A stretch of 39,485 bases of DNA from an uncultured Candidatus Marinamargulisbacteria bacterium (lineage in GTDB: Bacteria > Margulisbacteria > Riflemargulisbacteria > GWF2-35-9): positions 1-39,485 of the forward strand of contig CAIWAN010000098.1 in assembly GCA_903910705.1 (NCBI GenBank), given 5' to 3'. Below, one piece after another: positions 2,581-13,933 of the stretch. The stretch's first letter is position 1; each line of letters begins with the position of its first letter. The position numbers and the translations under genes were made by a program. The notes beneath the pieces were generated by a model, which saw only the letters and a list, made by a program, of their open reading frames with translations, was not told the DNA's origin and searched no databases.

Positions 2581-5307
2581 ATGATATGGGCAATCTATGG
2601 CGCTGTTGCGGCACTACTCGTCGTCCTTCCCTTTATACGGTTCGTCTTTAGTATATATCCTGAATATTTATGGTTTTTTGATCTCGGTTATGCCTCGGTC
2701 TTTCTTTCGACATGGGGATATCGTCTTCTCTATTCAGGCATAGCCGCCTTGGCCGCGTTTTTATTCATTTATATCAATCTTCGCATCGCTTTATGGGCCA
2801 GAAAACGCATGGCGAACGAGCCTCAGGTCATTATCGGCGACCATGACACGCCCGATTATCTCGACCAATTTAGTGCCTACTTTCGCCCCCTTGAGCATGG
2901 GTTTTTGATTCCACTCATCGCCTCGCTGTTAATTGGGCTTGGGTTTGGTTTGTTTTGGTTTGTTCGATGGGATATCGTGGCGTTAGCGCTTCATGCTCAG
3001 TCGTTTGGCATCGCCGATCCGCTGTTCAATAAAGACGTTGGGTTTTATATGTTCCAGTTGCCTTTGTTGCAAGCGGCTCTGGGTTGGGCCCGAAGCCTTC
3101 TTATTTTGACCTTACTCGCTATTGGTGTTTTATATGCCACGCGACGTGCCATTTCTTTTGCTGGGTTTAAAGTGCATATCCGCTCTGACATTAAGATCCA
3201 CGTGTCCGTTTTGCTGGCCTTATTCTTTTTGTTGTTAACCTTATCTTATCGACTCGGAATGTTCAGTCTTTTGTTTAATGACAAGGGCCTCATGTATGGC
3301 GCAGGCTTTACGGATGTCCACGCCGACCTGATGGGGTACAAGGCGCTGATGTTTATCTCTATTGTGATTGCGGGGCTGTTCTTTGTGAACCTCTTTCGAA
3401 ATGGCATATTGCTTCCCCTTGAAGGGATCGGGGTTTTGGTTGTTGTTTTTGTGTTGATGAAAGGCGTCTATCCCGTTGCGCTTCAGCAGCTTATTGTCAA
3501 ACCCAACGAAATGGAAAAAGAACGTCCCTATATTCATAATCATATTCAAATGACCCGATCAGCCTACGGTCTGAACAAGGTCAATGAAACGGTCTTTACG
3601 ATCAATGCGACCTTGACCCCACAAAGTCTCGAACGAAATCAGGATATGTTCGCCAATATCCGCCTTTGGGACCCGCGTCCTCTGCTGAAAACCTTAGAAC
3701 AGCTTCAAGAGATCCGCTTATATTACGGGTTTAACGATGTTGATGTTGATCGCTATACCATTGCGGGTAAGCCCCAGCAGGTCATGTTAGCCGCTCGTGA
3801 ACTGGATTCCGATCAACTGCCAGATCAGGCCCGAAATTGGATCAATCAAAAACTAACCTATACCCATGGTCATGGATTGGTGGTGCTTCCCGTCAATAAA
3901 ATGTCCGAAGAAGGCCTCCCTGAGTTCTATACCTACGATATTCCCCCCAAAACCATTAAAGATATGCCGGTCAAAGAAGCCGGTGTTTACTTTGGCGAGT
4001 CGACAAATAAGTATGTGATCGTTAATACCAAAGTCAAAGAGTTCGATTACCCCCAAGGCGATGCGAATCAATATAGCGTATACAATGGGCCTCAAGGGGT
4101 GATGCTCAGCTCTATTTGGCGTCGGCTGCTTTTTGCCATTAAATATCAAGAGATCAATTTCCTCTTATCGAATGCCCTGACCTCAAAGAGCAAAGTATTG
4201 TTCGATCGCAATATTCTGCTACGAGCGAAGAAAATCGCTCCGTTCCTTAGCTATGATGGTGACCCCTATCTTGTTCTGGTTAAAGGGAAGATGTATTGGA
4301 TCCTCGATAGTTATATTGTGGGTAGTCAATATCCGTATGCCAAGCCCTTCTCTGGATCGTATAATTATATTCGAAACGCCGTCAAAGTGGTGGTGGATGC
4401 CTATTCGGGTGAAACACGTTTTGTTGTCAACGATCCCCATGAGCCGTTCATCAAAGCCTACGCCGCGATCTTCCCTTCACTCTTTACCGCCGTTGCGGCC
4501 ATAGACCCCGAGATCCGCGCTCATTTTCGTTACCCCGAGGATCTTTTTCTGATCCAGTCCAAGATGTTTGGAACCTATCACATGACCGACCCGCAGGTTT
4601 TTTATAATCAAGAAGACCTCTGGGTTGTCCCTCAAGAAACGGTGGGCGAAGAGGCTACCCCGATGGAGCCTTACTATGCCATGCTCAAGCTCCCCGAAGA
4701 CAAGAGCCTAACCTTTCGACTGATGCTTCCGTTTACCCCCTCCAAAAAGAACAACATGATCGGCTGGCTCAGTGCCAACTCCGACCCTGATGCCTATGGA
4801 ACCTTGACCGCCTATAAACTTCCGAAAGAACAAATGGTCTATGGCCCGATGCAGATCGAGTCCCGCATCGACCAAGATACCGAGATCAGTAAACAGCTCA
4901 CGCTTTGGGGGCAAAAAGGCTCGACCGTTATTCGGGGCAATTTGTTGGTTATCCCTGTCGATCAATCATTTTTATATGTCGAACCCCTCTATTTGCAAGC
5001 AACCTCCTCACGTTTCCCAGAGTTAAAACGCATCATCGTTGCCTATGGGAACAAAGTGGCCATGGAGCCCACCTTTGAAGCAGCGCTTCGCAAAGTGTTT
5101 GATGGAGGGGCCTTTGAGTTGCGTGAAACAACGGGGCCGGCTGTGTCCACGACCCCCACCGATACCAGTGCAAAAGTCCGTCAATTGGCCGCAGAGGCAA
5201 ACACCTTGTATCTTCAAGCCCAGCAAGCCGTTCAAGCGTTAGATTGGAATGCGTATGGAGATTATACTCGCCGTTTAGGTGAGGTTCTAAAGGAGATGAG
5301 ACGATAA
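2581..5307 (+). CDS. UPF0182 (COG1615) large membrane protein
   Basis: This 908-residue protein has family-typical length. The N-terminal third has about seven hydrophobic segments, beginning at residues 5-25 ([16 protein letters not shown]) and including the [12 protein letters not shown] motif near residue 31. From about residue 310 onward it is one large soluble domain, presumably outside the membrane. It holds recognisable family stretches such as ENRPxxHNHIxxTRxAYGL, here around residues 315-335, and a region about GDPYLVLV. The last 40 residues include a coiled-coil-like Ala/Gln-rich tail ([20 protein letters not shown]). The biochemical function of the family is unknown. Its stop codon overlaps the icd start (TAATG), so the two genes are translationally close. 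Confidence 0.9.
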
Positions 5308-12074: not shown

Positions 12075-12677
12075 ATGGGGATTACGGAGTTCTTAGCTAA
12101 CAACATCACGTTGCTGATCGAGCGCGCTGGCTATCTGGGTGTCGGCTTTTTAATGATGCTCGAAAGCATGGTGTTCCCGATCCCGAGTGAAGCAGTGATG
12201 CCGTTCGCGGGCCGACTCATCGCTCAAGGCAAGATGACGTGGTGGTTTGTGCTCTTAGCTAGCACATCAGGCAGTATCGTCGGCTCCCTTTTGTCCTATT
12301 GGATGGGCAAATACGGCGGGCGTCCGATGGTTAATCTCTTTGGGAAATATCTGCTGCTTAATCATGAGGATCTGGATAAAACCGAGCGGTATTTCTCTCG
12401 ATTTGGCGGGATCACCGTTTTTGTTTGCCGATTCATTCCCGTCATCCGACATTTGATCTCCATCCCTGCGGGTTTGGCCAAGATGTCGCTGGGTCGCTTT
12501 ATTATCCTTACGGCCATTGGGGCAACGATCTGGAACATGTTCCTTGCATGGGCGGGTGTCGTTTGGGAGCAAAACTGGGATCAAGTGATGGCCTATCGGC
12601 ATATCATCGACAAAGGCGTAGTTCTCCTCCTTGTCGCCTTTATCGTTTATTTCATCATCAAACATATTCGAAAATAG
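12075..12677 (+). CDS. DedA family membrane protein
   Basis: This 200-residue inner-membrane protein belongs to the DedA/SNARE-associated group, linked to undecaprenyl-phosphate or phospholipid flipping and membrane homeostasis. It shows the conserved re-entrant segments: ESMVFPIPSEAVMPFAG (residues 29-45) with the key Glu and Pro, SGSIVGSLLSYWMGKYGGRP, and CRFIPVIRHLISIPAGLAKMSLGRF near residues 117-141 with the conserved Arg residues. Hydrophobic helices flank these, and the C-terminal helix ends in a short basic tail. A 201-bp repeat begins only 2 nt after the stop. Its start has a modest GGGGG-type Shine-Dalgarno. Confidence 0.88.
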   Translation: MGITEFLANNITLLIERAGYLGVGFLMMLESMVFPIPSEAVMPFAGRLIAQGKMTWWFVLLASTSGSIVGSLLSYWMGKYGGRPMVNLFGKYLLLNHEDLDKTERYFSRFGGITVFVCRFIPVIRHLISIPAGLAKMSLGRFIILTAIGATIWNMFLAWAGVVWEQNWDQVMAYRHIIDKGVVLLLVAFIVYFIIKHIRK

Positions 12678-12679
12678 CG

Positions 12680-12880
12680 GGAATTCTGTATTTTCTCTTT
12701 CTTCATTCACCGTCAGCGCAAATGTTCGAAACGACAATTGAGCTAGAAAAAATCCAAAGAGGAACCCCGTTTTAGGGGCCTCGACGATTTTTGCGTGAGC
12801 GAAATGGAGTAAGCCTTTGCGCTGACTAGGCTGGGTCAAGGGGACGGCTATGAGTCCCCTTGAAAAGAAAGTTGCCCTCT
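12680..12880 (+). repeat. 201-bp direct repeat, copy 1
   Basis: Nearly identical to 13555-13756: by eye there is one substitution (T/C near 12700) and one T insertion in copy 2 (in the T run near 12788). It runs from GGAATTCTGTATTTTC to AAAGTTGCCCTCT and lies just behind the dedA stop. It contains several nested inverted repeats, described under the ncRNA entry. No convincing reading frame crosses it. Confidence 0.97.
12712..12861 (+). ncRNA. Candidate structured RNA in repeat copy 1
   Basis: Four pairing elements are seen. GTCAGCGCAAA (12712-12722) pairs perfectly with TTTGCGCTGAC (12816-12826). AAAAATC (12748-12754) pairs with GATTTTT (12786-12792). GAGG-AA-CCCC (12759-12768) pairs with GGGGCCTC (12775-12782) over a GTTTTA loop. 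A separate 8-bp hairpin AAGGGGAC/GTCCCCTT is at 12838-12861. I do not recognise the family. It is not 6S, SRP, RNase P or tmRNA by conserved sequence. The strand is unproven because the stems are symmetrical. Confidence 0.45.
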
Positions 12881-12904
12881 GTTGCCAAAGGGCACACGAT
12901 GGAG

Positions 12905-12910
12905 TATATT
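12905..12910 (+). promoter_or_regulatory. -10 box for the toxin-antitoxin pair
   Basis: TATATT ends 9 nt before the ATG at 12920. A hairpin (GTTGCCCT with AGGGCAC, about 12871-12896) lies just upstream and no Shine-Dalgarno is present. Confidence 0.4.
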
Positions 12911-12919
12911 TTACTTTAA

Positions 12920-13201
12920 ATGAAACGCCTAAATTGGAATGATGATAAGAATGCCCTTCTAAAGAATCTTCGAGACATTACCTTCGAAGAAATAGCTTTC
13001 TTGATCAATAAAAATCAAGTCATTGAAATTACCGATCATCCCAATCAGGAGAAATATCCGGGACAGAGAATATTTGTGTTGAATATTCGAAATTATATCT
13101 ACCTTGTTCCTTTTATCGAAACAGAAACAGAGGTATTCCTCAAAACGATTATTCCTAGCAGAAAAGCAACAAAAAGATACTTGAAGATGGAGGGAGAATA
13201 A
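12920..13201 (+). CDS. BrnT-like ribonuclease toxin
   Basis: This 93-residue basic protein starts LNWNDDKNALLKNLRDITFEEI, which matches the F-x-W-D-x-x-K-N opening and the ISFEEA helix of BrnT (DUF497) toxins. IEITDHPNQEKYPGQRIFVL, then IRNYIYLVPF and FLKTIIPSRKATKRYL, follow as strands and a C-terminal helix with the Ser-Arg-Lys-Ala pattern. BrnT toxins are RelE-fold mRNA endonucleases. The antitoxin gene starts one base after its stop. The pair lies between two copies of a 201-bp repeat and looks like an acquired cassette. The family call is by motif memory and not by search. Confidence 0.7.
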   Translation: MKRLNWNDDKNALLKNLRDITFEEIAFLINKNQVIEITDHPNQEKYPGQRIFVLNIRNYIYLVPFIETETEVFLKTIIPSRKATKRYLKMEGE

Positions 13202-13202
13202 A

Positions 13203-13487
13203 ATGAAAAAGAATGAATTAGATGCTTATGAATCTGAAATATTAGAGGCTTTTGAAAAAGGGGAATTAACCCCCGTAACGGATATGGCTAAAGAAATGAA
13301 ACGTTATTCTCGCTACGCCGAAAATACGCTCAAGAAAGATAAGCGGGTTAATATTCGTATGTCCGAGCATGATCTCGATGCCATTCAACGAAAAGCTCTT
13401 CAAGAGGGCATCCCTTATCAAACCTTGATCTCAAGCCTTATTCATAAATATATTACCGGTAGTCATGACAAGGTGAGTGTAGGGTAA
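13203..13487 (+). CDS. CopG/BrnA-like antitoxin
   Basis: 94 residues, start supported by GGAGGGA at about 13190. The N-terminal half is acidic (ELDAYESEILEAFEKGELTP), fitting a toxin-wrapping segment. The C-terminal part KRVNIRMSEHDLDAIQRKALQEGIPYQTLISSLIHKYITG is a ribbon-helix-helix or MetJ/Arc-type DNA-binding domain, typical of CopG-type antitoxins that repress their own promoter. It follows the toxin by one base, in the brnT-brnA order. A possible operator is the -10 region at 12905, but I see no clear palindrome. Confidence 0.75.
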   Translation: MKKNELDAYESEILEAFEKGELTPVTDMAKEMKRYSRYAENTLKKDKRVNIRMSEHDLDAIQRKALQEGIPYQTLISSLIHKYITGSHDKVSVG

Positions 13488-13554
13488 GTTTACCTTATGT
13501 ATTAAACCAATCGCGGCTCAATCATCTTGCTACTGACGATGTCATTCAAAAGAT

Positions 13555-13756
13555 GGAATTCTGTATTTTCTCTTCCTTCATTCACCGTCAGCGCAAATGT
13601 TCGAAACGACAATTGAGCTAGAAAAAATCCAAAGAGGAACCCCGTTTTAGGGGCCTCGACGATTTTTTGCGTGAGCGAAATGGAGTAAGCCTTTGCGCTG
13701 ACTAGGCTGGGTCAAGGGGACGGCTATGAGTCCCCTTGAAAAGAAAGTTGCCCTCT
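13555..13756 (+). repeat. 202-bp direct repeat, copy 2
   Basis: Matches 12680-12880 except for two positions. Copy 2 has six T residues where copy 1 has five, so its AAAAAATC/GATTTTTT stem is full length. The right end lies inside the minus-strand gene 13724-13933 and supplies its last codons. The unit from the start of copy 1 to the start of copy 2 is 875 bp and carries the toxin-antitoxin pair. The stretch 13488-13554 before it holds no gene I can support. Confidence 0.97.
13587..13737 (+). ncRNA. Candidate structured RNA in repeat copy 2
   Basis: The same four stems as in copy 1, with the A/T stem extended to 8 bp by the extra T. Strand and expression are unknown. It would be convergent with the minus-strand signalling operon. 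Confidence 0.42.
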
Positions 13757-13933
13757 CGTGGAGAGGGGACGGGGGTGAAGCGTATAAAACTGACACTTCA
13801 TCGCTGAATTCTTTTGAACGTCAATGATGGGGTGATTCTTGGACTTAAACGCCAGGGCCTTGCATCCATACGGAAAGTTGCTGTCCCAGGTGACATAGAA
13901 ATGCTGACAGTCCTTGCAGCTAGGTCGAACCAC
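13724..13933 (-). CDS. Small Cys-rich protein, 3' end formed by repeat DNA
   Basis: 69 residues from GTG, one base after the RsbW-like stop, so it is the last gene of the minus-strand operon. CKDCQHFYVTWDSNFPYGCKALAFKSK (residues 6-32) followed by MKCQFY (near residues 45-50) gives four cysteines, suggesting a zinc or Fe-S knuckle. I recognise the CxxCxxFYVTWDxxxPYGCKAxGFKS pattern from small uncharacterised bacterial proteins but know no function. The natural domain seems to end at about FYTLHP. The final residues (RPLSTRGQLSFQGDS) are low-complexity and partly encoded by the 202-bp repeat, so the tail may be an insertion artefact. Confidence 0.65.
   Translation of the reverse strand: MVRPSCKDCQHFYVTWDSNFPYGCKALAFKSKNHPIIDVQKNSAMKCQFYTLHPRPLSTRGQLSFQGDS

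What the first reader, a model, noticed from the sequence alone, without database searches (positions are those of the whole stretch)
12680..13756. Duplicated structured-RNA-like repeat flanks a toxin-antitoxin pair
Two copies of a 201/202-bp sequence, about 99% identical by eye, lie 875 bp apart with the BrnT/BrnA-like pair between. Each copy has an 11-bp perfect closing stem, two inner stems and a separate 8-bp hairpin, which is far more pairing than chance. No protein is encoded. The arrangement looks like a cassette: repeat plus addiction module. It may be a mobile unit without a transposase or an RNA-guided or RNA-regulated unit; it might also be that the RNA controls the toxin. The 6-T variant of copy 2 restores full pairing of the A/T stem.
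Basis: partly seen in the sequence, partly recalled or inferred. Interest (0 to 1): 0.75.

Follow-up and report, generated by a model that had tools for sequence, protein, structure and literature searches.

The report
Dispersed hairpin repeat flanking toxin-antitoxin pair
The two copies are members of a previously undescribed family of small scattered DNA repeats, seen only in this uncultured bacterial genus, whose folded shape is kept even where the letters change; they sit at places where genes are swapped in and out, and the toxin-antitoxin pair between these two copies is probably just one such passenger.

Summary
The repeat is real: 12680-12880 and 13555-13756 are 200/202 identical, flanking a BrnT/BrnA-like pair. 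It is not a one-off. Its core (12712-12826, 13587-13702) is a long imperfect hairpin of a dispersed family found in only two genomes, both of this genus (phylum probably Margulisbacteria): 13 covariance-model hits here, 24 in the sister species, none in 72 other phylum genomes, none in Rfam, phage or plasmid collections. Across 31 copies 92% of pair cells are paired, 25 of 32 pairs show two-sided change, and the closing stem is rewritten while staying paired. G·T far exceeds A·C, so one strand is the folded one. Copies carry exchangeable 3' hairpins, suffer internal deletions and often form head-to-head pairs. They sit at synteny breaks in variable gene slots. Orientation to genes is random and toxin-antitoxin neighbours are not significantly enriched, so RNA control of the toxin is unsupported. 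Best reading: a new ERIC/BOX/REPIN-like small mobile element acting as a folded single strand. Mover, transcription and function are unknown. Orthologous copies evolve more slowly than neighbouring genes, so a functional RNA remains a live rival.

The parts
12680..12880 (+). Copy 1 of the duplicated 201-nt unit (5' pyrimidine-rich arm, core hairpin, type-1 3' hairpin, tail)
12712..12826 (+). Core hairpin of copy 1, 115 nt, closed by an 11-bp stem; match to covariance models R1 and R2
   Evidence: covariation
12836..12863 (+). Type-1 3' hairpin of copy 1: stem TCAAGGGGAC/GTCCCCTTGA, loop GGCTATGA (family loop GGCNATGA)
12882..12910 (+). Promoter-like site TTGCCA-17-TATATT before the BrnT-like gene, just outside copy 1 (consensus match only)
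12920..13201 (+). BrnT-like toxin gene, 93 aa
13203..13487 (+). BrnA/CopG-like antitoxin gene, 94 aa
13555..13756 (+). Copy 2 of the duplicated unit, 202 nt
13587..13702 (+). Core hairpin of copy 2, 116 nt
13712..13739 (+). Type-1 3' hairpin of copy 2
12677..13753 (.). Variable slot: absent from the sister species, which has a 204-aa ORF and no element here; flanks 82-85% identical

Best explanation
The repeat is a member of a new, genus-restricted family of small non-autonomous dispersed elements, of the general kind of ERIC, BOX and REPIN sequences. The unit is about 150-200 nt: a pyrimidine-rich 5' arm, a 115-nt imperfect hairpin (10-12-bp closing stem, conserved internal loop AATGNTYGA / RAGYCTT, A/T-rich middle stem, GG-AA-CCC apical stem) and an exchangeable 3' hairpin. 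Shown: dispersal, structural conservation by compensatory change, preference for one strand as the folded one, internal-deletion derivatives that keep the closing stem, 3'-hairpin exchange at the core boundary, position at synteny breaks in variable gene slots. Inferred: the element is recognised and copied, or recombined, as a folded single strand (ssDNA or RNA) by an enzyme supplied in trans, and its copies then serve as recombination points through which accessory genes, here a BrnT/BrnA-like pair, enter and leave. The 875-bp spacing fits a local duplication or single-crossover integration at a resident element, leaving the cargo between direct repeats.
For: Multi-copy in two genomes of one genus, absent from 72 other phylum genomes. 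Covariation 92.2% paired vs 75% shuffled, score 0.506 vs 0.193 shuffled and 0.10-0.135 slid; 25 of 32 pairs with two-sided change. G·T 43 vs A·C 7; closing stem 9 vs 0, still 18 vs 6 when counted once per pair position. No orientation bias relative to genes: 21 elements could be read in sense from upstream, 18 in antisense from downstream, so the folding strand is not set by host transcription. A 224-bp head-to-head segment is 96% identical in different contexts of the two genomes, and homology stops exactly at the core's 3' end, where type-2 and type-1 hairpins replace one another. Deletion derivatives of 44-63 nt total length keep the closing stem; L131 is a deletion of the copy L141 at the same locus. 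Slots differ at DedA, hisC and the tRNA slot.
Against: No clean empty site with target duplication was found, so insertion is inferred, not shown. No autonomous partner found. The closing-stem sequence is not conserved, unlike terminal repeats of transposase-moved MITEs. Orthologous copies at folD, cardiolipin synthase and L131/L141 are mostly 90-100% identical while adjacent coding windows are mostly 76-90%, which suggests selection in place rather than inert repeats. Only two draft genomes, many copies near contig ends.
Confidence: 0.6

Rival explanations
1. A dispersed family of functional structured RNAs (trans-acting or acting in local transcripts) maintained by selection at each site, with mobility secondary.
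For: Strong covariation and strand asymmetry; orthologous copies more conserved than adjacent coding sequence at three loci; conserved apical and internal-loop sequences and a conserved 3'-hairpin loop.
Against: At folD and cardiolipin synthase the 5' flanks are not conserved beyond about 12 nt between orthologous copies, so no conserved promoter there; random orientation to genes; absent outside the genus; frequent internal deletions.
Confidence: 0.25
2. An attC-like recombination site of an unrecognised integron-like cassette system: folded single strand, variable but complementary arms, accessory genes between sites.
For: Structure conserved while arm sequence varies; conserved outermost triplets GTC/GAC; accessory genes between copies here; breaks at element ends.
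Against: No integron integrase over cut-off; outer triplets GTC/GTT...GAC/AAC have the opposite polarity to attC (AAC...GTT, own knowledge); genes and elements not consistently co-oriented; no element-gene-element array beyond this one.
Confidence: 0.07
3. REPIN-type element moved by a REP-associated tyrosine transposase (RAYT).
For: The only Y1 transposase of the sister genome lies 191 bp from an element copy; head-to-head pairs; REPINs are known to show compensatory changes (PMC3116915).
Against: No Y1 transposase in this genome, 97.7% complete, which holds 13 hits; the RAYT is flanked by its own GTAG-type palindromes; closing-stem ends lack a conserved 16-mer.
Confidence: 0.06
4. The RNA regulates the BrnT/BrnA-like pair, or is itself the antitoxin of a special module.
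For: Adjacency in this window; a second BrnT-like pair (L132) also has a deleted copy 139 bp away.
Against: Most copies lie beside unrelated genes in either orientation; toxin-antitoxin neighbours not enriched over control; the BrnA-like gene looks like a normal protein antitoxin.
Confidence: 0.02

Closest known systems
ERIC / RU-1, YPAL and other bacterial MITE-like small mobile sequences (PMC2229807, PMC10969869)
   Same: 100-200 bp, intergenic, multi-copy, restricted to a taxon, long stem-loop from end-to-end pairing, shortened forms
   Different: Here the terminal stem has no conserved sequence but is kept paired, one strand is preferred, and the 3' hairpin is exchangeable; no target duplication shown
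BOX elements of Streptococcus (PMC3049150)
   Same: Modular structured repeats, modules combined differently among copies, expected to fold if transcribed
   Different: No sequence relation; no variable number of middle modules
REPIN/RAYT systems (PMC3116915)
   Same: Hairpin elements, inverted pairs, compensatory changes, ssDNA intermediate proposed
   Different: REPINs have highly conserved 16-mers at the ends and a cognate RAYT; neither is found in this genome
Integron attC sites (PMC8352920; box polarity from own knowledge)
   Same: Recombination sites conserved in fold as well as sequence, modelled by covariance models
   Different: No integrase, opposite terminal triplets, no co-oriented cassette array

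Membership tests
MITE/ERIC-like small mobile element | Short, multi-copy, intergenic, non-coding, stable stem-loop | tested here: met
MITE/ERIC-like small mobile element | Terminal inverted repeats of conserved sequence | tested here: not met
   Closing stem pairs but its sequence differs between copies
MITE/ERIC-like small mobile element | Target-site duplication / empty site | tested here: inconclusive
   Slots differ at DedA, tRNA and hisC loci, but no clean empty site
MITE/ERIC-like small mobile element | Autonomous transposon with the same ends | not tested
   Only Y1, IS110, TnpB and RT families were searched; most transposase families were not
REPIN/RAYT | RAYT gene in the genome | tested here: not met
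   No Y1_Tnp in G000; one in G001 with its own palindromes
Integron attC | IntI integrase | tested here: not met
   Best TIGR02249 match 68.5 bits vs cut-off 265
Integron attC | 5' AAC ... 3' GTT core boxes and co-oriented cassettes | tested here: not met
   GTC/GTT ... GAC/AAC instead; orientation random
IS110 bridge RNA | Adjacent IS110 transposase | tested here: not met
   None in G000; one in G001 on C46, a contig with no element hit
TnpB omega RNA | TnpB gene | tested here: not met
   No PF07282 match in either genome
Known Rfam RNA family | Match to a curated covariance model | tested here: not met
   No match at gathering score; only chance-level matches at E<=5, far below gathering
BrnT/BrnA toxin-antitoxin | BrnT and BrnA/CopG domains in tandem | tested here: inconclusive
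   Both significant but just under Pfam cut-offs (30.1 vs 34.5; 27.5 vs 28 bits)

The most novel reading that the evidence does not exclude
A folded single-strand recombination element that lets an uncultured bacterial genus swap accessory genes at many chromosomal slots without an integron integrase: conserved in shape, free in sequence, with interchangeable 3' hairpins marking the crossover point.
Probability: 0.12. Interest if true: 0.8.

Novelty: new variant of a known kind. Interest (0 to 1): 0.5.

Why it matters
Small dispersed repeats are usually defined by conserved sequence, with mobility inferred from terminal repeats. This family is conserved in fold, on one strand, while the terminal stem is rewritten, and it sits at gene-order breaks. 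That points to a single-stranded folded intermediate and gives a testable system for how uncultured bacteria exchange accessory genes such as toxin-antitoxin pairs. If the in-place conservation means function instead, it is an undescribed structured RNA family.

Tried and rejected
Outer stem between the 5' arm and the purine-rich 3' stretch: looked convincing in single folds, but swapped flanks pair as well (139 of 500 permutations), so rejected. Toxin-antitoxin association: not significant against control gaps. RAYT as mover: the RAYT has its own palindromes and is missing from this genome. Integron: no integrase, wrong polarity, no co-orientation. Bridge RNA and omega RNA. Phage or plasmid carriage: no DNA match in phage and plasmid records, none of a core pattern in viral contigs. 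BrnT search of viral contigs gave nothing. Retro-element link: one copy lies 366 bp from a reverse transcriptase gene of the diversity-generating type (L006), but no other copy was seen beside one; coincidence assumed. Possible CTTGAT x ATCAAG pseudoknot in the type-2 hairpin: seen in most type-2 copies but nearly invariant, so untestable by covariation.

Full report
Observation. The repeat exists as described: 12680-12880 and 13555-13756, 200 of 202 aligned positions identical, 875 bp apart start to start, with a BrnT-like and a CopG/BrnA-like gene between. The core between the closing arms folds with z = -5.5. The separate hairpin has 10 bp rather than 8.

A family. A DNA search of the window's own genome (G000, 2.2 Mb, 119 contigs) found three further partial matches, two of which start and stop at the closing stem, so the core 12712-12826 is the unit. 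Reading their surroundings by eye revealed far more diverged members with entirely different closing stems. A covariance model from seven copies and a second from 31 find 13 hits in G000 and 24 in the only other genome of the genus held (G001), a few of them antisense echoes or deletion derivatives, and none in 72 other genomes of the phylum. The phylum is probably Margulisbacteria: the best GroEL relatives are MAGs named Margulisiibacteriota and WOR-1 at about 70%. Rfam, phage, plasmid and viral-contig searches are negative.

Structure. On 31 copies aligned to the model, 92.2% of pair cells form standard pairs against 75.0% after shuffling; 25 of 32 pairs have two-sided changes; the covariation score is 0.506 against 0.193 (shuffled) and 0.10-0.135 (slid partners). 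The alignment was fitted to the model, which favours the structure, but the slid controls and an RNAalifold prediction on the same alignment (17 of 25 pairs with two-sided change) agree. The closing stem carries most of the signal: for example GTCAGCGCAAA/TTTGCGCTGAC, GTCACTCGAGAA/TTCTCGAGAGAC, GTTCCCCATGAA/TTTATGGGGAAC. G·T pairs outnumber A·C 43 to 7 (9 to 0 in the closing stem; 18 to 6 counted once per pair position), which a double-stranded palindrome would not give. So one strand appears to be read as a folded single strand. Some copies carry an additional roughly 20-nt hairpin in the 5' internal loop.

Modules. After the core comes one of two hairpins: type 1 (TAG..., loop GGCNATGA, variable complementary stem; both window copies) or type 2 (TTGATTTTTTG, loop ATCAAG, covarying stem). 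A third ending accompanies three short copies beside ORF6N genes (L130 twice, L133). Deletion derivatives of 44-63 nt, and smaller ones, keep the closing stem. Head-to-head pairs are frequent (L125, L138, L146, L007/L137, L136). A proposed outer stem was tested and rejected.

Position. Copies are intergenic, in no consistent orientation: 21 could be read in sense from upstream, 18 in antisense from downstream. Since the folding strand is defined but its orientation to genes is not, the structure is unlikely to be imposed by host transcripts. Toxin-antitoxin proteins make up 10-13 of 55 neighbours and 6 of 46 control neighbours, not significant. Between the two genomes, gene order is broken at or next to the element in the loci examined: folD and cardiolipin synthase (5' side), the DNA-binding-1 gene next to folD (3' side), L007/L137 (both sides, with a 224-bp head-to-head segment 96% identical in different contexts and a switch of 3' hairpin exactly at the core end), the tRNA slot (L136 vs L195, where G000 keeps only half a type-2 hairpin), hisC, and the DedA slot of the window, where G001 has a 204-aa ORF and no element. 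Breaks at repeats are expected also from ordinary homologous recombination, and I had no baseline rate of breaks.

Conservation in place. At folD, cardiolipin synthase and L131/L141, the element windows are mostly 90-100% identical between species while neighbouring coding windows are mostly 76-90%. Other copies in the same genome are more different than these orthologues, so conversion among copies does not readily explain it. This is the strongest argument for function in place and against a purely parasitic repeat; it rests on three loci.

Window copies. The boundaries of the variable slot coincide with the outer ends of the two copies. Their 99% identity extends beyond what other family members share, so they arose from one another recently. 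A local duplication, or single-crossover integration of a unit carrying element plus BrnT/BrnA-like pair into a resident element, both fit; the data do not separate them. Cargo flanked by two identical MITEs is known elsewhere (integrons of Acinetobacter, PMC10969869).

Comparison. It works most like ERIC, BOX and REPIN elements (PMC2229807, PMC3049150, PMC3116915), but fails as a member of REPIN/RAYT or integron attC on tested features, and as a classical MITE on conserved terminal sequence. No paper on such repeats in Margulisbacteria was evident in the one search made of the held library. I rate it a new variant of a known kind: a small dispersed element conserved in fold rather than sequence.

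Noticed in passing
L006:4642-6365 (G000 C39): Reverse transcriptase with an upstream bAvd-like protein fused to a MutS domain I, next to GNVGIGT-repeat proteins: looks like a diversity-generating-type locus with an unusual Avd-MutS_I fusion. A second RT lies on G000 C21 and one on G001 C78.
   Followed up: partly
L008:1000-3800 (G000 C34): Run of co-oriented small toxin-antitoxin operons (ParE, HicAB, DUF4160/DUF2442), several followed by a short repeat GGGCGATGTGTAAACGGGG; looks cassette-like.
   Followed up: partly
L130, L133, L135: ORF6N (KilA-N-like) genes each beside a copy; those in L130 and L133 go with a distinct short form of the element and partly shared 5' flank, as if gene and element were duplicated together.
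   Followed up: partly
L135:4720-5460 (G001 C27): Single REP-associated tyrosine transposase gene flanked by its own ATTGTAGAGACG-type palindromes.
   Followed up: partly
window 13750-13790 and many element flanks: A second, REP-like palindrome family (CCCCTCT...AGAGGGG followed by GGGGGTGAGG) accompanies many element sites and can form terminator-like sites on the minus strand.
   Followed up: no
type-2 3' hairpins, e.g. L006 just 3' of the core at 4159-4273(-): CTTGAT before the stem is complementary to the loop ATCAAG in most type-2 copies; one copy with ATTAAG keeps pairing by G-T, another (L128, ATCAAC) loses one end pair. Possible pseudoknot.
   Followed up: no
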